A program made the translations under genes and the position numbers. 37,651 nucleotides of DNA, taken from the NCBI GenBank assembly GCA_023522315.1, contig JAHCSU010000050.1:1-37651 (forward strand). Direction: 5' to 3'. The notes under the pieces were generated by a model. That model saw only the letters and a list, made by a program, of their open reading frames with translations. It was not told where the DNA came from and ran no database searches. Positions 1,008-18,466 of the stretch are shown piece by piece. How positions within the stretch are numbered: position 1 is the first letter of the stretch; the number at the start of each line of letters is the position of its first letter. This stretch comes from Nostoc sp. CCCryo 231-06. GTDB taxonomy: Bacteria > Cyanobacteriota > Cyanobacteriia > Cyanobacteriales > Nostocaceae.

Positions 1008-1700
1008 ATGGCAGAATTAATCACAGATGCAAATCCTCTTAACGGTACTAATGGCCCTGACACTCTAATTTACTCTAAGGAAAATGAGTTTGGAGGAGAT
1101 GATTTTCTTCCGAGTAGTATTTTTGATGTTGTTTCCATAAACGGATTAGACGGTGACGACCTTATCGGCGGTATTTCTCTTAGCAGCTATATCATCAATG
1201 GCGGTGCTGGCAACGATAACCTCTTAGGCGGTTATAACAATGATCTCCTCACAGGAGATGATCCCTATGATGGCGTTGCTGGTAACGATTACCTCGATGG
1301 ATCTGAGGGCAACGATGCCCTCTTTGGCCTTGGTGGCAACGATACCCTCATAGGGGGTGCTGGCACCGATACTCTCTATGGAGGCGATGGCAACGATGTT
1401 TTCCAGTTCGACTCAGTTTCAGATAGTCAACCTGGTTTGTTACGGGATATTATCAAAGATTTTGTTGGAAACGGTAACTTACCAGGAGATCGAATCGATC
1501 TATCTAGTATAGACGCTAACACCACCATAAAAGGCGACCAAGCCTTCACTTACATAGGAAGTCGCGGATTCACCGCACCCGGTCAGATCCGTTATTCAAA
1601 AGATATTCTCCAAGGTAATACTGATAATAATCTAGCGGCTAATTTCGAGATTCAGCTTGAAGGATCACCACTACTAGTGGCAAGCGATATTATCGTTTAA
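1008..1700 (+). CDS. RTX/hemolysin-type calcium-binding protein
   Basis: A 230-residue acidic protein with glycine-aspartate nonapeptides of the GGxGNDxLxGG type between about residues 60 and 135 ([40 protein letters not shown]). In known families these form a calcium-loaded parallel beta roll. The C-terminal third ([22 protein letters not shown] and a FEIQLEG segment) resembles the serralysin-type C-terminal domain. There is no N-terminal signal peptide, in keeping with type I secretion by a C-terminal signal. No HlyB/HlyD/TolC genes are nearby. There is no catalytic domain, so the product is probably an exported calcium-binding or surface protein. AGGAG precedes the ATG. Confidence 0.85.
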
Positions 1701-8225: not shown

Positions 8226-9242
8226 GTGGGTATAGTAGTTGAGAATGTCTCCAAACAATTCGGGAGTTTCAAGGCAGTTGATCAAGTCAGCCTGGAAATT
8301 AAGAGTGGTTCGCTAGTTGCCTTGCTCGGCCCATCGGGATCAGGTAAATCTACGCTACTACGGTTAATTTCAGGTTTAGAAATGCCAGATAGCGGCAAAA
8401 TCCTGCTTACCGGTAAAGACGCTACATACCAAAGCGTGCAACAGCGCAATATTGGCTTTGTGTTTCAGCACTATGCCCTATTTAAGCATCTGACTGTCAG
8501 GCAGAATATTGCCTTTGGTTTAGAAATTCGGAAGGCACAGCCAAAGAAAATTAAGGGGCGAGTAGAACAGTTACTCGAATTGGTGCAATTGACTGGACTA
8601 GGCGATCGCTATCCATCACAACTTTCTGGTGGTCAAAGACAACGGGTAGCATTAGCAAGGGCACTGGCTGTAGAACCCGAAGTCTTACTGCTAGATGAAC
8701 CCTTTGGCGCACTCGATGCTAAAGTCCGCAAAGACCTACGGGCATGGTTACGCCGCCTCCATGATGAGGTTCATGTTACCACGGTTTTCGTCACCCACGA
8801 CCAAGAGGAAGCAATGGAAGTCTCCGATGAAGTTGTGGTCATGAATAAAGGGCGCGTGGAACAAGTGGGGACACCATCGGAAATTTATGATAATCCTGCC
8901 ACTGCATTTGTGATGAGCTTCATCGGCCCAGTAAACGTATTACCTAGCACCTCGAAGATTTTTAAAAGTAGCGGATTTGATGCGCCACACCCACAAGTAT
9001 TTTTGCGCCCGCAAGATGTGATTTTTGAAACTAGCGCGAACGATGCCACTACACCTGCGACAGTGAGCCGATTAATACATTTGGGTTGGGAAATTCAAGT
9101 GGAATTAACTTTCGATGATGGGCAAGTGGTGATGGCGCATTTAACACGCGATCGCTTCAACCAATTAGAGTTAGAACCAAAACAGCGAGTGTATGTGAAA
9201 CCAAAGGATGCAAAGTCCTTCCCCCTGTCTTATTCAATTTAG
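8226..9242 (+). CDS. cysA: Sulfate/thiosulfate-type ABC transporter ATP-binding protein
   Basis: 338 residues starting at GTG with AGAGG upstream. Walker A is GPSGSGKST (about 34-42), Q-loop VFQHYALF, signature [15 protein letters not shown], Walker [15 protein letters not shown]-loop [10 protein letters not shown]. The C-terminal region (about 230-338) is a TOBE-like regulatory domain with FLRPQDV, as in CysA-type importers. It would power sulfate uptake together with CysT, CysW and a periplasmic binding protein, none of which is adjacent. Related anion importers (molybdate, Fe) share this architecture, so the substrate is inferred. Confidence 0.85.
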
Positions 9243-9367
9243 TTAGCAATGTAGAATTATTTATGCTTGTTGCTTTAAGTCAAAGCAGAAAAGCGTTGCC
9301 AGAATTTTTGCCAAATCCACCAGTAGCCAGTGTAATCAGAGATAGATTGCACAAAGATATACAAAAG

Positions 9368-9401
9368 CACCAGCCTAGTATCATACTGAGGCTGGTGTGC
9401 T
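9368..9401. terminator. Hairpin between convergent cysA and the DUF4360 array
   Basis: A 9-bp perfect stem (CACCAGCCT and AGGCTGGTG), with further pairing of AGTAT and ATACT inside, then TGCTGGCTTTT. It lies between two convergent genes and could end transcripts from either side. Confidence 0.5.
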
Positions 9402-9483
9402 GGCTTTTCACTAATTTTTTGTGAGGATTAATTTAATCCTCTAAACTTCGACTTTCTACATCGCACCGCTATATCTGCCCCTA

Positions 9484-10092
9484 CTAACAAGGAGTCAAAT
9501 TAAACCTAATTCTATAAACCCCATTGAATCCAATTTGAGTTCGCTGCCCCGCAGCTACATTTGTAGCACGCGCTATCAAAGTTGTATTGATGCCGAAAAC
9601 CGAATTCACTCGGTTAGCACACGCGTCTACTGTATCTCCTGTAATAGCTACATCTTTTAGCCATCCACCTGAAGAGCCAGACGGGAAGTTTGCGTTTAGA
9701 TCATTCGTAGATGGAATTACTTTCCCTTGAAACACTGGTCTAACCCTTAGAGCAGCAGTACCCCCTTGAGGCACATTTGTAAAACCAGAATACCTCAGGT
9801 TAATGGGCTGAACTTTGTAGCCTCTAGGTATATTAAGCCCAATTCTGAGATTGCAAGATTGTGATACAACTCTAGGAGATACAGCTGTAGCCTGAAATCG
9901 AGGGAAAGTTACAGACAGAGTATTTCCTACCAAACTTACTAGGGCATTTCCCGAGGGGCAGCCATTTCCGAAAACAGTTACTGGAACACTTTCAAACTGA
10001 AATGCTGGTGTTTGAGCCTGTGCCTGAGATAAACCCACAACATTTAAACTCAGTAGCGTCAAACTGGAAATAAGAGCAGTTAAAACTTTCAT
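9484..10092 (-). CDS. Secreted DUF4360-like protein, array copy A
   Basis: The most diverged and most downstream member of a six-gene array. I start it at ATG 10092 (MKVLTALISS), which gives 202 residues and matches the sister genes; longer in-frame starts add a non-homologous tail. Signal peptide about 1-26 ending QAQAQ. The mature part has the four conserved Cys (GCP near the start, SCNLRIGLN, DAC, and Cys as the last residue), the IPRGYKVQPINLRYSGF motif and ARATNV. The pattern resembles DUF4360, a family of secreted proteins of unknown function. It lacks the IDTTIG segment and the GGAG ribosome site of its sisters. No post-stop AAATGCA hairpin is present. Confidence 0.85.
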   Translation of the reverse strand: MKVLTALISSLTLLSLNVVGLSQAQAQTPAFQFESVPVTVFGNGCPSGNALVSLVGNTLSVTFPRFQATAVSPRVVSQSCNLRIGLNIPRGYKVQPINLRYSGFTNVPQGGTAALRVRPVFQGKVIPSTNDLNANFPSGSSGGWLKDVAITGDTVDACANRVNSVFGINTTLIARATNVAAGQRTQIGFNGVYRIRFNLTPC

Positions 10093-10245
10093 ATCTTTCA
10101 TCTCAAATAAGGGAAGCTTATCAGGTTTGTTGTTAATACTATGTCTCAAGACATAGAGTCAAAAACTTCTTCAGAGCGATTGGAAGAAATCTTTTGATAA
10201 CTTGGTAAAGCAGCTTTTAATAGTTCAGCTTGTGGGGTAAATTAA

Positions 10246-10269
10246 ATGCAAAACTGACTATGCATTTAC
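10246..10269 (-). terminator. Hairpin after array copy B
   Basis: On the minus strand the AAATGCA and TGCATTT arms flank a ten-base loop and are followed by AATTTA. The same arrangement follows copies C, D, E and F, so it is conserved as a unit with the genes. It suggests that each gene is transcribed singly. Confidence 0.55.
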
Positions 10270-10274
10270 AAAAC

Positions 10275-10907
10275 CTAACAAGGATTAAAAGCGAACTTTA
10301 TTTGAAACAATACAGGCCCGATTGCTGTATCGATTTTATCAATTCGGATTTTGGTTTCTTGATTTGCAGGTATGTCTCTAGCTCTTGCCGTTAGATTTGT
10401 ATTGATACCAAAAATCGAATTTACTGGGTTTTGACATGCATTTATTGTGCCTAATACAATACCTACATCTTTACTCCAAGTAGCTGAGAAACCAGGCGCA
10501 AAAGTTGCGTTTGGATCATCGATAGTTTGAAGTTCTTGACCTTCAAAAATTATTTTCACGTTCAGGTTAGCACTGCCTCCTGTAGGCACATCTGCAAAGC
10601 CAAGATACTTGACTTGAATCGGCTGAACGTTAAATCCAGAAGGTACATTCAGACCGATCCGCAGATTACAGGATGCTGATACAACCTTAGGGGGTGAAGC
10701 TTTAGCTTCAAACTCAGAAAGTGTTATCAAAAGAGTATCTGCATCCAAAATTCCCTTTGCTGTTCCGTTTGGGCAGCCATTTCCGAAAAGAGTTACTGGA
10801 ACTTCTTGAAGCTCAAATCCTGGTGTTTGAGCCTGTACCTGAGATAAACCCACAAGATTTAAACTCAGTAGCGTCAAACTGGAAATCATACCAGTTAAAA
10901 CTTTCAT
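10275..10907 (-). CDS. Secreted DUF4360-like protein, array copy B
   Basis: 210 residues. GGAG lies eight bases before the ATG. Signal peptide MKVLTGMISSLTLLSLNLVG..QAQ. The mature domain keeps all four Cys, VPSGFNVQPIQVKYLGFADVPTGGSA and FGINTNLTARARDIPANQETKIRID. It carries IDTAIGPVLFQIKFAFNPC near the end. The upstream spacer is long (740 bp, 10908-11647) and includes an operator-like palindrome at 11091-11109 and a foldback element. The gap to copy A is short (182 bp) and holds its hairpin. Function unknown. Exported, probably disulfide-bonded. Confidence 0.9.
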   Translation of the reverse strand: MKVLTGMISSLTLLSLNLVGLSQVQAQTPGFELQEVPVTLFGNGCPNGTAKGILDADTLLITLSEFEAKASPPKVVSASCNLRIGLNVPSGFNVQPIQVKYLGFADVPTGGSANLNVKIIFEGQELQTIDDPNATFAPGFSATWSKDVGIVLGTINACQNPVNSIFGINTNLTARARDIPANQETKIRIDKIDTAIGPVLFQIKFAFNPC

Positions 10908-11090
10908 CTAAGTAACTCCGCGAAAATCTGTAATCTCCTATGAATATTACATAGAATGTCAATCTCCTAATATACTTCTAGACAGATAAACTTTACCTGG
11001 CAAACTCTTTGAGCTTTGGGCATGTTTACCAATCATTAAATGTATGGAATACGCTCTGGTTAAAAAAGACAGAAACATGATAAAACAATC

Positions 11091-11109
11091 AATTTCTGAC
11101 TTGGAAATT
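11091..11109. promoter_or_regulatory. Operator-like inverted repeat upstream of copy B
   Basis: AATTTCTGACTTGGAAATT, 184 bp before the copy B start. Cognate sites sit at a similar distance before copies D, E and F. The role is inferred. Confidence 0.4.
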
Positions 11110-11140
11110 GTTTACCAGTGTATTTCACTTATCAGAAAAT

Positions 11141-11348
11141 AATTCAGGAGTCAGGACTTAGAATTCAGAATTGAATTCTGCACCAAAAATCAGATAAAGC
11201 AGAGGTAGCGAGTCTACCAGCGAATGAATAAGTGAGTTTAAGACCCTAACTAAATCTTCTCTTTTGGAGACGCACTCGCTTTCGATTTAGCGTTAAAGAA
11301 TAAAATGGCGGTATTCAACCTCCACTAATTGATTCTGACTCCTGAATT
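11141..11348. repeat. Spacer foldback element, copy 1
   Basis: Perfect 13-bp terminal inverted repeats (AATTCAGGAGTCA, TGACTCCTGAATT). The centre (11251-11289) is a TAAATC...GATTTA-bounded segment in the same orientation as copy 2 and opposite to copy 3. Confidence 0.65.
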
Positions 11349-11617
11349 CTTACTTCTGAATTCTTCTTTAATTAAGAATTGCCCTCACAAGAAGTTTTAC
11401 AAACATTGTACCATCAAACCATCAAAGAAAAATATATTTTACCTATCCAAAGACATATTTTTTGCAAATTGTGATTTTGTTAGATATATTAGCTAGTTTG
11501 GCTTGACCTAACTATTTATCAAGACAGAGGGTCAAAGATTGATTCAGAGCAACTGGAAGAAATATTTAGATAAGTTGGTAAAGCAGCTTTACAAACAGCA
11601 GGTTTTGTAAAAAATTA

Positions 11618-11641
11618 AATGCAAAACTGACTATGCATTAA
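11618..11641 (-). terminator. Hairpin after array copy C
   Basis: ATGCA/TGCAT stem around the same ten-base loop as the hairpins after copies B and E, followed by a T-rich run on the minus strand. Confidence 0.55.
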
Positions 11642-11647
11642 AAAAAC

Positions 11648-12295
11648 CTAACAAGGATTAAAATCAAACTTGATTTGGAACAATACATCACCGATTGTTG
11701 TTGTGTCGATTGGATCAATTCGGATTTGGGCTTCTTGACGTGTAGGTATATTTGTAGCTCTTGCCGTCAGATTTGTATTGATACTAAAAACTGAACTCAC
11801 TGGCCTCCTACATGCATCTATTGTGTGTACTACAATACTACCTCCATGTTCGCTCCAAACATCTGAGAAGCCAGGCCCAAACGTTCGGTTTGGATTAACG
11901 TCAGGTGGAACTGCTTGACCTGGAAAGACTAATTTAACCCTCACGTCAGCCTTGCCTCCTGTAGGCACATCTGCAAACCCACCATACTTGATACTACCCG
12001 GCTGAACGTTAAATCCAGAAGGTACATTCAGACCGATGCGGAAATTGCAGGATTTTGATACAACATTAGGACGTGAAGCTTTAGCTTCAAGCGCAGAAGA
12101 AGATGTAATTGAAAGGGTATCTCCATTCAAAACTCCCTGTATTGTGTTCGACGATGGGCAACCAGTTCCCGAAAAACTTACCGGGACAGTTTGAAACGAA
12201 AATCCTTGTTGTGTTTGAGCCTGTACCTGAGATAAACCCACAACATTCAAACTCAGTAATGTCAAACTGGAAATCAGACCAGTTAAAATTTTCAT
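11648..12295 (-). CDS. Secreted DUF4360-like protein, array copy C
   Basis: 215 residues with GGAG before the ATG. Signal peptide MKILTGLISSLTLLSLNVVG..VQAQT. Conserved Cys in GTGCP, KSCNFRIGLN, DACR and the terminal NPC. It has VPSGFNVQPGSIKYGGFADV and FSINTNLTARATNIP. Compared with its sisters it has small insertions (for example a run before IQGVLNGDTLS and a GGSIVV in place of VGI). It is separated from copy D by only 132 bp and lacks the upstream palindrome, so it may depend on copy D transcription or a short promoter of its own. Confidence 0.9.
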   Translation of the reverse strand: MKILTGLISSLTLLSLNVVGLSQVQAQTQQGFSFQTVPVSFSGTGCPSSNTIQGVLNGDTLSITSSSALEAKASRPNVVSKSCNFRIGLNVPSGFNVQPGSIKYGGFADVPTGGKADVRVKLVFPGQAVPPDVNPNRTFGPGFSDVWSEHGGSIVVHTIDACRRPVSSVFSINTNLTARATNIPTRQEAQIRIDPIDTTTIGDVLFQIKFDFNPC

Positions 12296-12397
12296 CTAAT
12301 AACTCCGCGAAAATGTGTAATCTTCTGTGAATATTAGAGGATGTTGAAAAAGGATTTTTTGTAAGATCAAAGCCTCGAAAAGTTTTATGAAAAATTA

Positions 12398-12421
12398 AAT
12401 GCCAAACTGACTATACATTTA
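12398..12421 (-). terminator. Hairpin after array copy D
   Basis: Same position as the others, but the stem is weakened (AAATGTA against GGCATTT) by two base changes. Confidence 0.4.
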
Positions 12422-12427
12422 AAAAAC

Positions 12428-13063
12428 CTAACAAGGATTAAAAGCAAACTTGATTTGGAATAATACATCCTTGATTGTTGTGTCAATTGTATTAATTCGG
12501 ATTTGGGTTTCTTGATTTGCAGGTATACCTCTAGCTCTTGAAGTCAGAGTTGAATTAATACCAAAAACCGAACTGACTGGTCTACTACATGCATTTATTG
12601 TGTTTGCTATAATATTTATATTTTTGTTCCAAGTATCTGAAAAGCCAGACGGAAACGTTTGGTTTGGATTATTGATAGTTGCAACACCTGCACCTTGAAA
12701 TGATATTTCAACCCTCAAATCAGCACTGCCTCCTGTAGGCACATCTGCAAAGCCAAGATACCTGACGCTAATCGGCTGAACGTTAAATCCAGAAGGTATA
12801 TCAAGACCGAACCGCAGATTGCAGGATGCTGATACAACCTTAGGAGGTGAAGCTAAAGCTTCAAACTGAGAAAATGTTACTGAAGCAGTATCTCCATTCA
12901 AAACTAGCTGTGCTGTTCCTTTTGGGCAACCATTTCCGAAAAAAGTTCCAGCAACTTTTTGAAACGTAAATCCTGTTGGTGTTTGAGCCTGTACCTGAGA
13001 TAAACCCACAACATTTAAACTCAGTAGCGTCAAACTGGAAATTAGACCAGTTAAAATTTTCAT
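12428..13063 (-). CDS. Secreted DUF4360-like protein, array copy D
   Basis: 211 residues, GGAG eight bases before the ATG. Signal peptide nearly identical to copies C, E and F. Conserved GNGCP, SASCNLRFGLDIPSGFNVQP, INACSRPVSSVFGINSTLTSRARGIP and terminal NPC. The first-strand region differs (KVAGTFFGNGCPKGTAQL). The upstream spacer of 728 bp has the palindrome and the second foldback copy; the gap to copy C is only 132 bp. Confidence 0.9.
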   Translation of the reverse strand: MKILTGLISSLTLLSLNVVGLSQVQAQTPTGFTFQKVAGTFFGNGCPKGTAQLVLNGDTASVTFSQFEALASPPKVVSASCNLRFGLDIPSGFNVQPISVRYLGFADVPTGGSADLRVEISFQGAGVATINNPNQTFPSGFSDTWNKNINIIANTINACSRPVSSVFGINSTLTSRARGIPANQETQIRINTIDTTIKDVLFQIKFAFNPC

Positions 13064-13245
13064 CTAATAACTCCGCAAAAATGTTTAATTTCCTGTGGAT
13101 ATTAGCTGCAATGTCAAATTCCTAAAATACTTCTACAAAAACAAATTTTACCTAGTAGCCTTTTCCAGGTTTGAGGATTTATAGCAGTTCTTAATTGTCT
13201 GCAATACGCTCTGCTTAAGGGAGACAGAAATAGGATAAAATAATC

Positions 13246-13264
13246 AATTTCTGACTCAGAAATT
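13246..13264. promoter_or_regulatory. Operator-like inverted repeat upstream of copy D
   Basis: AATTTCTGACTCAGAAATT, a perfect 9+1+9 palindrome, 183 bp before the copy D start. It is the best-conserved of the four sites. Confidence 0.45.
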
Positions 13265-13295
13265 ATTTATCAACGTATTTCACTTATCAGAAAAT

Positions 13296-13501
13296 AATTC
13301 AGGAGTCAGGATTTAGAATTCACAATTGAATTCTAAACAACTGGGGAATAGCGCAGCCGTAGCGAGTCTACAGGGGATGAAAAAATGGATTTAAGACCCC
13401 ATTAAATCTTCTCTTTTGGAGACGCACTCGCCTTCGATTTAGTGGTCAACAATAAAATAACGGGACTCAACCCCCCAGTAATTGATTCTGACTCCTGAAT
13501 T
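13296..13501. repeat. Spacer foldback element, copy 2
   Basis: Same 13-bp termini as copy 1. The central segment at 13403-13441 has the same orientation as in copy 1. Confidence 0.65.
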
Positions 13502-13761
13502 CTTACTTCTGAATTCTGCTTCAATTCAGAATCGCCCTTATAATAACCCTTGAGAAAATTCAAAATCACAGAAAAGTATATTTTACCTATCCAAAGGCAG
13601 ATGTTTTACAAACTGTGATTTCGTTAGATTTTTCAGCTACTTTGACTTTACCTAACTATTTATCAAGACAGAGAGTCAAAGATTTATTCAGAGCGATTAG
13701 AAGAAATCTTTTGAAAATTTGGTAAACCAGCTTTATAGGGAGTAGCTTTTGGGAAAAATTA

Positions 13762-13785
13762 AATGCAAAACTAACTATGCATTTA
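13762..13785 (-). terminator. Hairpin after array copy E
   Basis: AAATGCA/TGCATTT stem with a ten-base loop, then AATTTTT on the minus strand. Confidence 0.6.
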
Positions 13786-13791
13786 AAAAAC

Positions 13792-14424
13792 CTAACAAGG
13801 ATTAAAATCAAACTTGACTTGGAACAATACCTCACCGATTGTTGTGTCGATTGTATCAATTCGGATTTGCGTTTCTTGGCCTCTAGGTATAGTTGTAGCT
13901 CTTGCTGTCAGAGTTGAATTGATACCAAAAACCGAACTCACTGGTCTACTACATGCATTTATTGTGTTTAATGTAATACCTACATCTTTGTTCCAAACAT
14001 CTGAGAAGCCAGCCGGAAACGTTTGGTTTGGATTATCGTCAGTTGGAACTTCTTTACCTTGAAAGAGTATTTTCACGTTCAGGTCAGCACTGCCTCTTGT
14101 AGGCACATCTGCAAAGCCAAGATACTTGACGCTAACCGGCTGAACGTTAAATCCAGAAGGTATATTCAGACCGATCCGCAGATTGCAGGATGCTGATACA
14201 ACCTTAAGACGTGGAGCTTTAGCTTCAAATGCAGAAAATGTTATTGAAAGGGTATCTCCATTCAAAACTCCCTCTATTTTTCCCGGTGGGCAACCAGTTC
14301 CCGAAAAACTTACTGGAACATTTTGAAACTCAAATCCTTGTGTTTGAGCCTGTACCTGAGATAAACCCACAACATTTAAACTCAGTAGGGTCAAGCTGGA
14401 AATAATGCCAGTTAAAATTTTCAT
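13792..14424 (-). CDS. Secreted DUF4360-like protein, array copy E
   Basis: 210 residues from ATG 14424, preceded by GGAG. An in-frame ATG 39 bases upstream adds a tail absent from the sister genes. It has the shared signal peptide, GTGCPPGKIEGVLNGDTLSITFS, SASCNLRIGLNIPSGFNVQPVSVKYLGFADVP, INACSRPVSSVFGINSTLTARATTIP, IDTTIGEVLFQVKFDFNPC, with all four Cys. The 'TGG' of DVPTGG is TRG here. Confidence 0.9.
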   Translation of the reverse strand: MKILTGIISSLTLLSLNVVGLSQVQAQTQGFEFQNVPVSFSGTGCPPGKIEGVLNGDTLSITFSAFEAKAPRLKVVSASCNLRIGLNIPSGFNVQPVSVKYLGFADVPTRGSADLNVKILFQGKEVPTDDNPNQTFPAGFSDVWNKDVGITLNTINACSRPVSSVFGINSTLTARATTIPRGQETQIRIDTIDTTIGEVLFQVKFDFNPC

Positions 14425-14612
14425 ATTGTTAGACTCCGCGAAAACGTTTAATTTCCTGTACAAATTAGCTGCAATTTAAAATTCCCTAAGACTCTTCCTT
14501 CTACACAAAAGAATTTTAACACCAGCCTCTTTGGTGTTTGGGGACTTATACCAGTTCTTATTTGTCTGTAATACGCTTTGGTTAAAGCAGAGAGAAATAG
14601 GATACAATAATC

Positions 14613-14631
14613 GATTTCTGGCTCTGAAATT
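14613..14631. promoter_or_regulatory. Operator-like inverted repeat upstream of copy E
   Basis: GATTTCTGGCTCTGAAATT, 189 bp before the copy E start. One of four aligned sites. Confidence 0.4.
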
Positions 14632-14762
14632 ATATTATCAGCGTATTTCATTTATTTAAGAATTGCCATTTTATTGCCAATACTATTTTTAACAACAGAT
14701 AGCCAAAGATTTCTTCAGAGCGATTGAAAGAAATCTTTGGATAAGTTTGGTAAAGCAACTTA

Positions 14763-14909
14763 AGAGGATGTTTTAAAACGGTATTTTGCTCTCATGATAA
14801 AGCACGGTGAAGCATCTCAGTATATGGCTGAAATCGTATTTTTTTCGTCGCACTTGACCTGAGCCAGAATGGTAAAACTATACCTTCTGGGACTTTTAAA
14901 ACATCCTCT
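14763..14909. mobile_element. 147-bp MITE flanked by TA, probably IS630/Tc1-type
   Basis: Perfect 16-bp terminal inverted repeats (AGAGGATGTTTTAAAA), flanked on each side by TA, extending the symmetry to 18 bp (14761-14911). The sister spacer downstream of copy E has the uninterrupted sequence, which allows the insertion point to be read. No coding capacity. Assignment to IS630/Tc1 rests only on the TA flanks. Confidence 0.7.
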
Positions 14910-14935
14910 TAGAGGCATCAGCTTTTGTGAAAAAT

Positions 14936-14954
14936 TAAATGCAGATTATGCATT
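14936..14954 (-). terminator. Hairpin after array copy F, shortened loop
   Basis: AAATGCA and TGCATTT are kept, but the loop is reduced to five bases. A loop deletion that spares both arms supports the hairpin as the functional feature. Confidence 0.6.
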
Positions 14955-14961
14955 TAAAAAC

Positions 14962-15618
14962 CTAGCAAGGATTAAAAGCAAACTTGATTTTGAATAATAC
15001 AGGCCCGATTGTTGTGTCGATTGTATCAATTCGGATTTGGGTTTCTTGATTTTGAGCTACAGTTGTAGCTCTTGCCGTCAGATTTGTATTGATACCAAAA
15101 GTCGAATTCACTGGCTTCTTACATGCATTTATTGTACCTAATGTAATACCTACATTTTTGTCCCAAACATCTGAGAAGCCAGGGTTAAACGTTGCGTTTG
15201 GATTATTGTTAGTTGGAACTATTTGACCTTGAAATAGTATTCTAACATTCAGATTAGCACTGCCTCCTTTAGGCACATCTGCAAAGCCAAGATACTGGAC
15301 GTTAACGGGCTGAACATTCAATCCAGAAGGTACATTAAGACCGATCCGGAGATTACAGGATGCTGATACAACCTTAGGAGGTGAAGCTTTAGCTTCAAAC
15401 TCAGAAAATGTTACTGAAAGAGTATCTCCAATCAAAATTCCCTCTGCTGTTCCCTTTGGGCAACCATTTCCGAAAAGAGTTACTGGAACTTTCTGAAAAG
15501 TAAATCCTTCTTGTGTTTGAGCCGGTACCTGTGGTGTTTGAGCCTGCACCTGAGATAAACCGACAACATTTAAACTCAGTAGCGTCAAGCTGGAAATCAG
15601 ACCAGTTAGAATTTTCAT
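14962..15618 (-). CDS. Secreted DUF4360-like protein, array copy F
   Basis: 218 residues from ATG 15618, GGAG upstream. An in-frame ATG 39 bases earlier is less likely. Its mature N-terminus contains a short internal duplication (VQAQTPQVPAQTQEG), making it the longest copy. All four Cys are kept (GNGCP, SASCNLRIGLNVPSG, INACKKPVNSTFGIN, terminal NPC), with IDTTIGPVLFKIKFAFNPC. First gene of the array in transcription order. Confidence 0.9.
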   Translation of the reverse strand: MKILTGLISSLTLLSLNVVGLSQVQAQTPQVPAQTQEGFTFQKVPVTLFGNGCPKGTAEGILIGDTLSVTFSEFEAKASPPKVVSASCNLRIGLNVPSGLNVQPVNVQYLGFADVPKGGSANLNVRILFQGQIVPTNNNPNATFNPGFSDVWDKNVGITLGTINACKKPVNSTFGINTNLTARATTVAQNQETQIRIDTIDTTIGPVLFKIKFAFNPC

Positions 15619-15799
15619 ATTTTTCGACTCCGCAAAGACGTGATAATTTCTGGACATGAGCTGCGACTTAAAATTCCTAGGATACTTCTACGCAAAGGAA
15701 CTTTACCCAGCAGCCTGTTTGGGGTTTTGGGATTTTTAGCAGTTATTAAATATGTTCAATACGCTCTGCTAAGGCAGACAGAAACATGATAAAACAATC

Positions 15800-15818
15800 A
15801 ATTTCTGGCTGTGAAATT
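15800..15818. promoter_or_regulatory. Operator-like inverted repeat upstream of copy F
   Basis: AATTTCTGGCTGTGAAATT, 182 bp before the copy F start. Confidence 0.4.
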
Positions 15819-15849
15819 ATTTCTCAGCGTATTTCACTTATCAGACAAG

Positions 15850-16042
15850 AATTCAGGAGTTAAAGTTGTCAATCTAGAATTTAATTCTGTACAACTGGGG
15901 TAGCTACCCTACGAGCGGATGAATAAATGGTTTAAGGCGGCGACTAAATTGCTCGCGTAGCGTCTCCAAAGGAGAAGATTTAATGGTCAACTACAAATAG
16001 GCGGGTCTTAATCCCCCACTAATTGATTTTGACTCCTGAATT
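15850..16042. repeat. Spacer foldback element, copy 3 with flipped centre
   Basis: Termini AATTCAGGAGTTA and TGACTCCTGAATT. The flanks align with copies 1 and 2, but the central segment 15945-15982 matches them only as its reverse complement. Confidence 0.65.
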
Positions 16043-16385
16043 CTGATTTCTGAATTTTTCCATTGAGAACTGCTCTTTAACAAGCCTCAATAAAATAATA
16101 AGTCCTCTGAGAAATATTTTATATCTATCTAAAGGAATAGATAAAGTAAATTTTAACAAACTATTACGGGAAAGTACGTAGGCACGTAACGGTGAAACTC
16201 CGCTCTTGGCAAGGGTTTCCTACCTTGTAGGTATTGTAGTAACTGCTGTCAAGTTGCGTCAGGCGATCGCGAGTAAGATGCTGCTGTATCAGGAACACAG
16301 CCCTTATGAGCATCAATGCTTATCGTCATACATCGCTTTTACCTAAGATCATCTCAACAGCTTATTTAGCGTCGCTAAAGATAAA

Positions 16386-17120
16386 CTAATTTTCTAAAAT
16401 CTGGATTTCATCAAGTTTATTAATCACCACATCCGCACCTCGGACATTATCCGACTTACCCACCCAAGTGATACCAATACAACCTGCGGCTTTAGCATTA
16501 CGCGCCATTTGCATATCACCAACGGAATCACCCACCATCAATGTAGCGCCTGGTTCGACTCCCAAAGCTTGGCAAGCTTGCAAAAATAGCACCGGATCTG
16601 GTTTACTCGGCCCCTCATCTACTCCCATTTCCAATTCGATATAATTATTTAATTGGTGATTTTCTACAAAGTTATGTACTTCATCACTTGTTGCTGCGGA
16701 GAGGATACCAAGTTTCAAACCCCCTTTCCGTAGGTATTTCAACAAGTCTAAGCTACCCACAAACAGGGGTGAAGGAGTTTTTTCAATGTATTTTTCCGCT
16801 TCATCCAAAGCTTGACGGGCTATTTTTAAGGATTCAAACCATCCTCTACCTGTTTCGGCAATATATGCCGCAGCCGCAACTTCTGTTTCACGGCGACTCG
16901 CTACCGATATCAAACCCGCCGGATCTAGAATATTCCCATTGATGCCAAATGCCATTAATAGGGGTTCCCCAATGCCGGGAACTTGAGCGTCTATCAACCT
17001 GGCTGCTCTTTGTGCGAGCGATCGCAAATACGTTTCTGAATCTTCTAGAGTACCGTTTTTATCAAACAAAATTGCCTGGATATTATCAAAAGTGATGTTT
17101 CTACATTTAATAGTTGCCAC
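16386..17120 (-). CDS. HAD-superfamily hydrolase, phosphoglycolate phosphatase-like
   Basis: 244 residues from a GTG start (GGA ten bases upstream). HAD motif I is FDKNGT (Asp20), motif II LSAATS, motif III Lys in GPSKPDP, motif IV VGDSVGDM. The insertion between motifs I and II is a helical type-1 cap. In place of the usual DxD the sequence is DxN (Asn22): the second Asp normally acts as acid/base in phosphatases, so activity may be altered. Substrate unknown. It lies downstream of rps1 on the same strand but beyond a terminator. Confidence 0.85.
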   Translation of the reverse strand: MATIKCRNITFDNIQAILFDKNGTLEDSETYLRSLAQRAARLIDAQVPGIGEPLLMAFGINGNILDPAGLISVASRRETEVAAAAYIAETGRGWFESLKIARQALDEAEKYIEKTPSPLFVGSLDLLKYLRKGGLKLGILSAATSDEVHNFVENHQLNNYIELEMGVDEGPSKPDPVLFLQACQALGVEPGATLMVGDSVGDMQMARNAKAAGCIGITWVGKSDNVRGADVVINKLDEIQILEN

Positions 17121-17278: not shown

Positions 17279-18466
17279 TTATTCTTCAATAGCTGCTGGA
17301 ATTTCTTCTTCAGTTTCCGTGGCTGCTGGAATCTCTTCTTCAATTTCCGCAACTACTGGAATTACTCCGTCAAGTTCTGCTGCTGGTGGAATATCTTCGT
17401 CAAGTTCTGCTGCTGGTGGAATTTCTTCTTCAAGTTCCGCTGCTGGCGCAATATCTTCGTCAAGTTCCGTTGCTGGTGGAATATCTTCGTCAAGTTCCGC
17501 TGCTGGTGGAATATCATCTTCTGATACAACTTCCGCAGGTGCAGCCGCCGCAGCAGTAGCACCTTGTTGCTTGGCTAACAGCTGTTCACGATATTTAGCA
17601 GCCATTTCTTCTGCTTTATCGTAGACCAAATCCCGGTTTTTAATCATGTCGCCAGGTTCGGGTTCTAGCTGCTTGGTAGATAGAGAAATCCGACCCCTTT
17701 CTGCATCCAAGTCAATGATCATAACTTTTACTTCATCATTGACATTGAACACGCTATGAGGTGTATCAATATGTTCGTGGGAAATCTCAGAAATGTGCAG
17801 TAGACCACTGACGCCGCCAATGTCGATGAAAGCACAGTAAGGTTTGATCCCACGAACTGTACCAATTACTACTTCGCCGACTTCTAGGCGGTTCATTTTA
17901 CGTTCAACCAGCGCCCGACGGTGAGATAGAACTAGACGGTTACGTTCTTCATCCACCTCTAGGAATTTTAATGGCAAATCTTCGCCTACCAATTCTTCTT
18001 TAGGTTTGCGAGTACTAATATGGGAACCGGGGATAAAGCCGCGTAATCCCTCAATGCGTACCAATGCTCCACCGCGATTGGTTGCAAATACGCCAGAACG
18101 GACAGTAGCATCTTCTGCTTGCAGCTGTCGCACGCGCTCCCAAGCCCGCATATATTCAATACGGCGAATGGAAAGGGTTAATTGACCATCTTCGTTTTCA
18201 TCGGTAAGGATGAAAAATTCCCGCGTTTCGTTTGACTGTAAGACTTCTTCCGGGCTATCTACCCGGTTTATAGACATTTCTTGTATAGGAATATATGCTG
18301 CGGTTTTAGCACCAATGTCAATCAGAGCGCCGCGCGGCTCTATACTGAAAACTGTTCCTGGTACAACATCACCAGGGCTAAAATGATAATCGTATTTGTC
18401 AAGTAGAGCAGCGAAATCTTCGTGAGTGAATCCAATTTCTGTAGCGGTTAAATTCTGATTGACCAT
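17279..18466 (-). CDS. rps1: 30S ribosomal protein S1, cyanobacterial type with acidic repeat tail
   Basis: 395 residues. Three S1 (OB-fold) RNA-binding domains lie at about 31-100, 118-185 and 196-266: GDVVPGTVFSIEPRGALIDIGAKTAAYIP, then the degenerate second, then GEVVIGTVRGIKPYCAFIDIGGVSGLLHISEIS. This is the short form of S1 typical of cyanobacteria and plastids, which binds mRNA leaders on the 30S subunit. The tail from about 317 consists of eight acidic ten-residue units (consensus EDIPPAAELD), encoded by 30-bp tandem repeats. AGGA precedes the ATG. Confidence 0.95.
   Translation of the reverse strand: MVNQNLTATEIGFTHEDFAALLDKYDYHFSPGDVVPGTVFSIEPRGALIDIGAKTAAYIPIQEMSINRVDSPEEVLQSNETREFFILTDENEDGQLTLSIRRIEYMRAWERVRQLQAEDATVRSGVFATNRGGALVRIEGLRGFIPGSHISTRKPKEELVGEDLPLKFLEVDEERNRLVLSHRRALVERKMNRLEVGEVVIGTVRGIKPYCAFIDIGGVSGLLHISEISHEHIDTPHSVFNVNDEVKVMIIDLDAERGRISLSTKQLEPEPGDMIKNRDLVYDKAEEMAAKYREQLLAKQQGATAAAAAPAEVVSEDDIPPAAELDEDIPPATELDEDIAPAAELEEEIPPAAELDEDIPPAAELDGVIPVVAEIEEEIPAATETEEEIPAAIEE
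17282..17518. repeat. 30-bp tandem repeat coding the S1 tail
   Basis: Seven full units and one nine-codon unit, in frame. Units nearest the centre are nearly identical in DNA; the 3'-terminal three are more diverged. Confidence 0.85.

What the first reader, a model, noticed from the sequence alone, without database searches (positions are those of the whole stretch)
9484..15618. Six-copy tandem array of secreted four-cysteine DUF4360-like proteins
Six genes, same strand, share signal peptide, four Cys positions (the last being the final residue), a VPSGFNVQP-type motif and FGIN..LTARA. DUF4360 is a family of unknown function. Six adjacent copies with divergence concentrated in the first strands (after GCP) look like recent expansion with diversification. 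I see no enzymes or regulators in the array, so the product may be a set of exported surface or interaction proteins.
Basis: partly seen in the sequence, partly recalled or inferred. Interest (0 to 1): 0.75.

Follow-up and report, generated by a model that had tools for sequence, protein, structure and literature searches.

The report
Fast-evolving secreted-protein gene array in Nostoc
Six neighbouring genes of a Nostoc-like cyanobacterium make secreted proteins that share one scaffold but change unusually fast in sequence, which suggests a set of proteins that touch something changeable outside the cell; what they bind is unknown.

Summary
In detail: six same-strand genes (9484-15618) encode exported four-cysteine proteins. 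All six exceed Pfam's DUF4360 cut-off, and a confident model of one matches Bd1399 of Bdellovibrio, the one clear structural hit. "Recent expansion" is mostly wrong. An array of this type is seen in 15 of 52 congeneric (Nostoc) genomes; in the 14 with an unbroken locus it lies between an HAD hydrolase gene and a cysA-like gene. Four copies (D1, D2, D4, D6) form clades that cross species and D5 mostly does; only the D3 type is a variable extra. An empty allele exists: one genome in the array clade has 122 bp there. The striking part is the rate of change: orthologue dN/dS is 0.38-0.77 against 0.03-0.15 for five neighbouring genes. Two of five orthologue groups show sites with excess replacement that no null simulation reached; three neighbours tested show none. 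All 74 full-length copies keep four cysteines. Best explanation: an extracellular recognition or binding repertoire on a beta-sandwich scaffold. The target is unknown, and I have no expression or binding data.

The parts
9484..10092 (-). D1: secreted DUF4360 protein, 202 aa; cysA-proximal copy, the most divergent lineage
   Evidence: PF14273 61.5 bits (on the longer ORF 9484-10149); orthologue clade of 11 rows plus 5 deeper rows
10275..10907 (-). D2: secreted DUF4360 protein, 210 aa
   Evidence: PF14273 75.9 bits; orthologue clade of 10 rows
11648..12295 (-). D3: secreted DUF4360 protein, 215 aa; variable, lineage-specific copy, grouped with D5-like copies
   Evidence: PF14273 56.9 bits; D3-type copies (5 rows) are often nearest to another group, mostly D5
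12428..13063 (-). D4: secreted DUF4360 protein, 211 aa
   Evidence: PF14273 77 bits; orthologue clade of 9 rows
13792..14424 (-). D5: secreted DUF4360 protein, 210 aa; highest dN/dS of the five orthologue groups
   Evidence: PF14273 74.9 bits (on the longer ORF 13792-14463); dN/dS 0.77
14962..15618 (-). D6: secreted DUF4360 protein, 218 aa; HAD-proximal copy, used for the structure model
   Evidence: PF14273 79.9 bits (on the longer ORF 14962-15657); model pLDDT 89.8, top PDB match 8okh
15535..15618 (-). signal peptide of D6 (residues 1-28); near-identical in all six genes
   Evidence: the 6 matches in G000 at E up to 10 all fall in the array; low dN
10915..11179 (-). upstream region of D2; its repeats recur upstream of D4 (13068-13346) and D6 (15651-15900), a shorter part upstream of D5 (14524-14633)
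   Evidence: repeat families D10-D12 and D14; the 160 bp before each start are alignable within each orthologue group
8226..9242 (+). flank: cysA-like ABC transporter ATPase; its 3' flank exists as an 'array' or an 'empty' version in relatives
   Evidence: ABC_tran + TOBE
16386..17120 (-). flank: HAD-family hydrolase
   Evidence: PF00702

Best explanation
The six genes encode exported proteins with the DUF4360/Bd1399 beta-sandwich fold, held by two disulfides (Cys1-Cys2, Cys3-C-terminal Cys). They act outside the cell or at its surface as a small repertoire of binding or recognition proteins. The scaffold (core strands, cysteines, signal peptide) is conserved while scattered, mostly loop or edge, positions change fast, as expected when the partner changes or differs between lineages. 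The repertoire is kept as an old paralogue set at one locus, grows and shrinks copy by copy (3-7), and is exchanged as a whole with an empty allele by recombination in the conserved flanks. Shown here: family, predicted fold of D6, conserved cysteines, signal peptide, old paralogy, site-wise excess replacement in two groups, empty alleles. Inferred: disulfide pairing, extracellular action, binding, exchange by flank recombination, and that a biotic partner drives the change. Not known: the ligand.
For: DUF4360 membership 6 of 6. D6 model pLDDT 89.8, pTM 0.83; Foldseek top hit 8okh (E 8e-8, TM 0.63/0.71), listed ranks 3-50 have TM 0.34 or less. Two conserved disulfides in Bd1399 in the same order, the last to the C-terminus. 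dN/dS of orthologues 0.38-0.77 against cysA 0.046, HAD 0.148, rps1 0.116, psbB 0.034, chlP 0.030 in the same genomes. Codon mixture test: 2dlnL 20.0 (D1) and 21.3 (D5), reached by 0 of 60 null simulations each; cysA, HAD and rps1 give 0.8, 0.5 and 0.0. 62 sites (signal peptide included) are purifying and 9 candidate diversifying at posterior 0.9. 74 of 74 full-length copies have exactly four Cys. Array versus empty version at one locus.
Against: No ligand, localisation or expression evidence. The selection test is an in-house grid method, not a published program, and the neighbour controls are strongly constrained genes, an easy control. D2 and D4 give little (2dlnL 4.1 and 2.7; 1.1 and 8.2 with constant synonymous rate); D6 passes only when the synonymous rate is held constant (11 of 60 simulations reach its value otherwise). 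With separate trees for three segments D1 falls to 17.1/5.4 and D5 to 16.3/20.4, so recombination may explain part. Fast sites could be merely tolerant surface positions. Broken or partial copies occur in relatives (5 short frames in 4 genomes; a relic in L052), so single copies are dispensable.
Confidence: 0.45

Rival explanations
1. Matrix or sheath proteins: abundant secreted beta-sandwich proteins that cross-link or coat the Nostoc polysaccharide. Several copies give dosage or slightly different properties, and the sequence drifts because only fold and disulfides matter.
For: Signal peptide, conserved cysteines, multi-copy; one named array holder is from desert soil (N. indistinguendum CM1-VF10), where matrix matters; single copies are lost without loss of the array.
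Against: Drift alone should not give sites with replacement above the synonymous rate (D1 and D5, 0 of 60 null simulations each); no such array was seen in 37 of 52 congeneric genomes, and an empty version of the locus exists, so it is no general matrix part.
Confidence: 0.25
2. Effectors for plants or fungi (symbiosis): secreted proteins that act on a eukaryotic partner, as proposed for fungal DUF4360 proteins.
For: Fungal DUF4360 protein VdSCP27 is secreted and triggers cell death and defence in Nicotiana (passages of PMC7170778); Nostoc includes many symbiotic lineages (passages of PMC12559999); replacement excess at some sites.
Against: One array holder came from desert soil (passage of PMC8354539); lifestyle of the other holders was not determined, so no link to symbiosis was tested; the likeness to fungal DUF4360 is at family level only.
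Confidence: 0.12
3. Secreted antagonists of competing microbes or of predators, with variation driven by target resistance.
For: Bd1399 was upregulated during predation and in a set required for effective predation by Bdellovibrio (section 10 of PMC10792529); diversification and whole-array exchange would fit.
Against: No immunity, export or regulatory genes recognised between the copies; besides DUF4360 only one sub-threshold Pfam hit (DUF6786 on D1) and no NCBIfam hit; in Coprinopsis a PF14273 protein is listed under mechanical damage, not under the nematode or bacterial challenges (passage of PMC4704728).
Confidence: 0.1
4. Relaxed, decaying array: a formerly useful set under weak constraint, with no diversifying selection.
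For: High dN/dS, five broken or short frames among 79, absence in a genome inside the array clade.
Against: 74 of 74 full-length copies keep four Cys; signal peptide dN stays low (0.016-0.037); 62 sites purifying; sites above one in D1 and D5 beyond null simulations.
Confidence: 0.08

Closest known systems
Bd1399 of Bdellovibrio bacteriovorus (PDB 8OKH, CASP15 T1194)
   Same: Elongated beta-sandwich; four cysteines in the same order with the last at the C-terminus; signal peptide; best structural match.
   Different: About 15% identity over the structural alignment; no tandem array and no diversification mentioned in the section read; its role is tied to prey invasion.
Pfam PF14273 DUF4360, canonical form of Nostocales-like genomes (E about 1e-37 to 1e-45)
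   Same: Same Pfam family, similar length.
   Different: Closer to the Pfam model (about 127-157 against 57-86 bits in most array copies); mostly one copy per genome; in 0 of 52 genomes of the genus on the tree together with the array, though G153 of another genus has both.
Fungal DUF4360 secreted proteins (VdSCP27; Hebeloma, Coprinopsis)
   Same: Secreted, four Cys in VdSCP27, same Pfam family (passages).
   Different: Fungal; VdSCP27 is an elicitor in plants and its cysteines are not essential for that; no tandem array mentioned in the passages seen.

Membership tests
Pfam PF14273 DUF4360 | score over the curated cut-off of 27 bits | tested here: met
   6 of 6 proteins, 56.9-79.9 bits
Pfam PF14273 DUF4360 | near full-length coverage of the 178-position model | tested here: met
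   D2, D4, D5 and D6 cover 8/9-178; D1 covers 8-165 and D3 covers 7-167
Bd1399 / DUF4360 fold | elongated all-beta sandwich matching 8OKH | tested here: met
   predicted model of D6 only: pLDDT 89.8; Foldseek E 8e-8, TM 0.63/0.71
Bd1399 / DUF4360 fold | two disulfides, Cys1-Cys2 and Cys3-C-terminal Cys | tested here: inconclusive
   four Cys conserved in 74 of 74 full-length copies; pairing inferred from 8OKH, not measured
Fungal DUF4360 effectors | acts on a eukaryotic host | not testable with these tools
   no assay data seen for cyanobacterial members; 0 papers in the held library contain both DUF4360 and 'cyanobacteri'
Diversifying gene family | codon sites with replacement above synonymous rate | tested here: inconclusive
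   D1 and D5 beyond 60 null simulations each; D2 and D4 weak and not simulated; D6 depends on the model

The most novel reading that the evidence does not exclude
A Nostoc-specific, exchangeable repertoire of surface recognition proteins: a paralogue set on one disulfide-locked scaffold whose exposed positions are under diversifying selection and which is swapped as a unit with an empty allele between lineages, serving in recognition of kin, predators or partners.
Probability: 0.25. Interest if true: 0.75.

Novelty: new variant of a known kind. Interest (0 to 1): 0.5.

Why it matters
DUF4360 proteins occur from fungi to predatory bacteria, and none of the passages I saw gives a molecular role. 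A bacterial array with natural variation, a natural empty-locus comparison and a list of fast sites gives a concrete handle on what the fold binds. It would also be a fast-evolving secreted repertoire in a cyanobacterial genus known for symbiosis.

Tried and rejected
Recent six-fold expansion: rejected by orthologue clades and conserved order. Gene conversion as the cause of paralogue likeness: the nearest neighbour stays in the same group for D1, D2 and D6 in all four mature windows; exceptions are one D4 row, two D5 rows and most D3-type rows; the signal-peptide window has 6 exceptions of 52 rows. A seventh relic upstream of D6, suspected from repeat D17 at 16213-16244: no protein match there at E 0.1, so left unproved. 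The only intergenic matches at E 0.1 were 15 residues on the opposite strand upstream of D5 (E 0.003 at best) and 11 residues in 9243-9483. DUF4360 relics in nine HAD-cysA gaps without array: only weak matches, E 0.04 or worse.

Mutual exclusion of array and canonical DUF4360: 0 of 52 genomes of the genus (own one counted, G034 left out) have both (16 array, 21 canonical, 15 neither; Fisher p 3e-5), but the tree gives only 3-4 independent pairs, so it may be ancestry alone; G153 has both. Shared neighbours of the canonical gene: none in more than 5 of 27 loci. Sequence search of PDB: best E 1.4 with one protein, 0.27 with the profile. NCBIfam: no hit. Rfam: none in the window. Promoter and terminator scans at or below chance. 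Viral structure library: top rank TM 0.45/0.39. A Nostoc co-culture exoproteome paper (PMC11890772, passages) has no mention of 'DUF' or 'unknown function' in its main text; supplements could not be read.

Limits: the species tree uses psbB, rps1 and HAD, which lie next to the array, so local recombination could shift G009 or G033; G034 was left out. The gene tree is a quick one with 33 of 73 inner forks open. The codon tests used only named orthologue rows of the main clade and dropped D3-type and deeper-clade copies. The control run scaled branch lengths with a mean ratio of 0.2 instead of 0.5.
Full report
What is there. Six - strand genes fill 9484-15618 between a cysA-like ABC ATPase gene (8226-9242, +) and an HAD hydrolase gene (16386-17120, -). 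Each starts with nearly the same signal peptide and has exactly four cysteines, the last being the final residue. All six exceed Pfam's DUF4360 cut-off. No other copy was found in the own genome (7.08 Mb, 720 contigs), and its six matches to the signal peptide all lie in this array. I number them D1 (cysA side) to D6 (HAD side).

Fold. One structure job on the mature D6 with 43 array sequences of the window and of named Nostoc loci gave pLDDT 89.8 and pTM 0.83, all beta. Foldseek's best PDB match is 8okh, Bd1399 of Bdellovibrio (E 8e-8, TM 0.63/0.71); listed ranks 3 to 50 have TM 0.34 or less. The paper's section on Bd1399 (section 10 of PMC10792529, read whole) describes an elongated beta-sandwich, two conserved disulfides (one to the C-terminus) and a link to predation, and relates it to DUF4360. 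Cysteine pairing in the Nostoc proteins is inferred from it.

Age of the array. 50 of 99 genomes (own counted) have DUF4360; 15 of 52 others of the genus carry a cluster of this type (clusters read from the table). In 14 of these, fetched, the array lies between HAD and cysA, with rps1 and psbB beyond HAD; in the fifteenth (G027) it is split over contigs. In the gene tree of 76 rows D1, D2, D4 and D6 form starred clades that cross species, D5 is looser, and D3-type copies fall near D5 (quick method, many weak forks). Orthologue dS in the mature part is 0.10-0.14, paralogue dS in the window about 0.32. So most paralogues are older than the species. Copy number runs from 3 to 7, partial copies counted.

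Exchange with an empty allele. On a tree of psbB, rps1 and HAD (62 genomes) the array occurs in three lineages of the genus; four changes are needed. G009, inside the main array clade, has HAD and cysA 122 bp apart. G050, sister of array-bearing G033, has a Uma2 gene there and no array. The last ~100 bp before cysA are 89% identical between G009 and G050. This flank was also found next to cysA in 6 of 27 further genomes examined (G039, G026, G012, G007, G022, G023), but in none of the 15 array genomes compared. Of the 14 other array genomes 11 match the window's own cysA flank over about 180 bp or more, and G010, G048 and G004 over only 26-33 bp. I read this as an older empty version and an array version exchanged by flank recombination. 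Repeated loss is an alternative; the marker genes are local, so recombination may bias the tree. In many genomes of the genus HAD and cysA are not close together. Outside the genus, G153 has three copies at a place far from its HAD and cysA genes. Of 386 genomes drawn from the phylum (own counted) 31 have a DUF4360 match.

Rate of change. In nine genomes (eight for D4 and chlP) NG86 dN/dS is D1 0.58, D2 0.45, D4 0.71, D5 0.77, D6 0.38; controls are cysA 0.046, HAD 0.148, rps1 0.116, psbB 0.034, chlP 0.030. dS is 0.09-0.15 in the array and 0.13-0.23 in the controls. The signal peptide has low dN (0.016-0.037) in all five groups, but in D2 the next region is equally low (0.025) and the peptide's dN/dS is 0.80 because dS is low too. 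Between paralogues the peptide is closer at the DNA level than mature windows (0.08-0.09 against 0.21-0.26).

Site test. An in-house codon mixture (grid of synonymous and replacement rates) gave 2dlnL for replacement above synonymous rate of 20.0 (D1), 4.1 (D2), 2.7 (D4), 21.3 (D5) and 3.5 (D6); with constant synonymous rate 10.6, 1.1, 8.2, 30.9 and 26.7. Null simulations (60 per group, D1, D5 and D6 only) reached the observed value 0, 0 and 11 times, and 0, 0 and 0 times with constant rate. Controls cysA, HAD and rps1 gave at most 0.8, and 2.2 with constant rate. With separate trees for three segments: D1 17.1/5.4, D5 16.3/20.4, D6 3.5/23.0. The D1 constant-rate value then lies within the range of its single-tree null (maximum 5.8). 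Nine sites reach posterior 0.9 when the five groups are combined (77, 79, 86, 133, 135, 142, 145, 189, 206 in D6), and 62 are purifying. On the model 7 of these 9 lie in coil or in strands or bridges of three residues or fewer (read). They are not confined to the region after GCP.

Constraint. Of 79 frames collected in the array loci, G153 included and the distant G087 left out, 74 are full-length; 74 of 74 have exactly four Cys and 73 of 74 end in Cys. Five short frames in four genomes are broken or partial copies. Upstream repeats are shared among D2, D4, D6 and partly D5 and the 160 bp before the start are alignable within each orthologue group, so the duplicated unit probably includes a leader. 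Promoter and terminator scans gave nothing above chance.

Function. A conserved scaffold and export signal with fast exposed positions point to an extracellular binding or recognition role. A fungal relative acts on plants (passages of PMC7170778) and Bd1399 is tied to predation, but these are different branches of the family. One array holder, N. indistinguendum CM1-VF10, comes from desert soil (passage of PMC8354539), which speaks against a strictly symbiotic role. A search for DUF4360 together with 'cyanobacteri' in the held library found no paper; DUF4360, PF14273 or IPR025649 gave 7, none on cyanobacteria by title.

Verdict. Real and well delimited; family known, function unknown. The array is old within the genus, has an empty counterpart and evolves fast. 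That pattern is the interesting part; the mechanism remains inferred.

Noticed in passing
window 15535-15618 and the five homologous stretches: The signal peptide is far more conserved between paralogues than the mature protein, strongly at replacement sites and less so at synonymous sites; that signal peptides normally drift is general knowledge, not tested.
   Followed up: partly
G041:C1:4788472-4788552: A lone copy of the array signal peptide in a 60-residue open frame away from the array.
   Followed up: no
L105:5266-5850; upstream of the array in L052, L054, L055, L057, L058: DNA of about 605-635 bp, 84-89% identical, lies between HAD and the array or empty site in six genomes; in L105 it holds a Uma2-family gene, the others were not scanned.
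   Followed up: partly
L086:7722-9951: Another genus (G153) carries three array-type copies at a different locus, with a sigma-70-region-2 gene two ORFs upstream and a proline-rich repeat protein downstream.
   Followed up: partly
window 13399-13425 and 15960-15986: A 27-bp element occurs twice in opposite orientations within the intergenic repeats, with one mismatch (one match is the query itself).
   Followed up: no
window 17279-18466: The S1-domain protein next to HAD has a C-terminal acidic IPPAAELDED-type repeat tail; in several relatives the match ends before it.
   Followed up: no
window 1008-1700: Protein with RTX calcium-binding repeats (PF00353).
   Followed up: no
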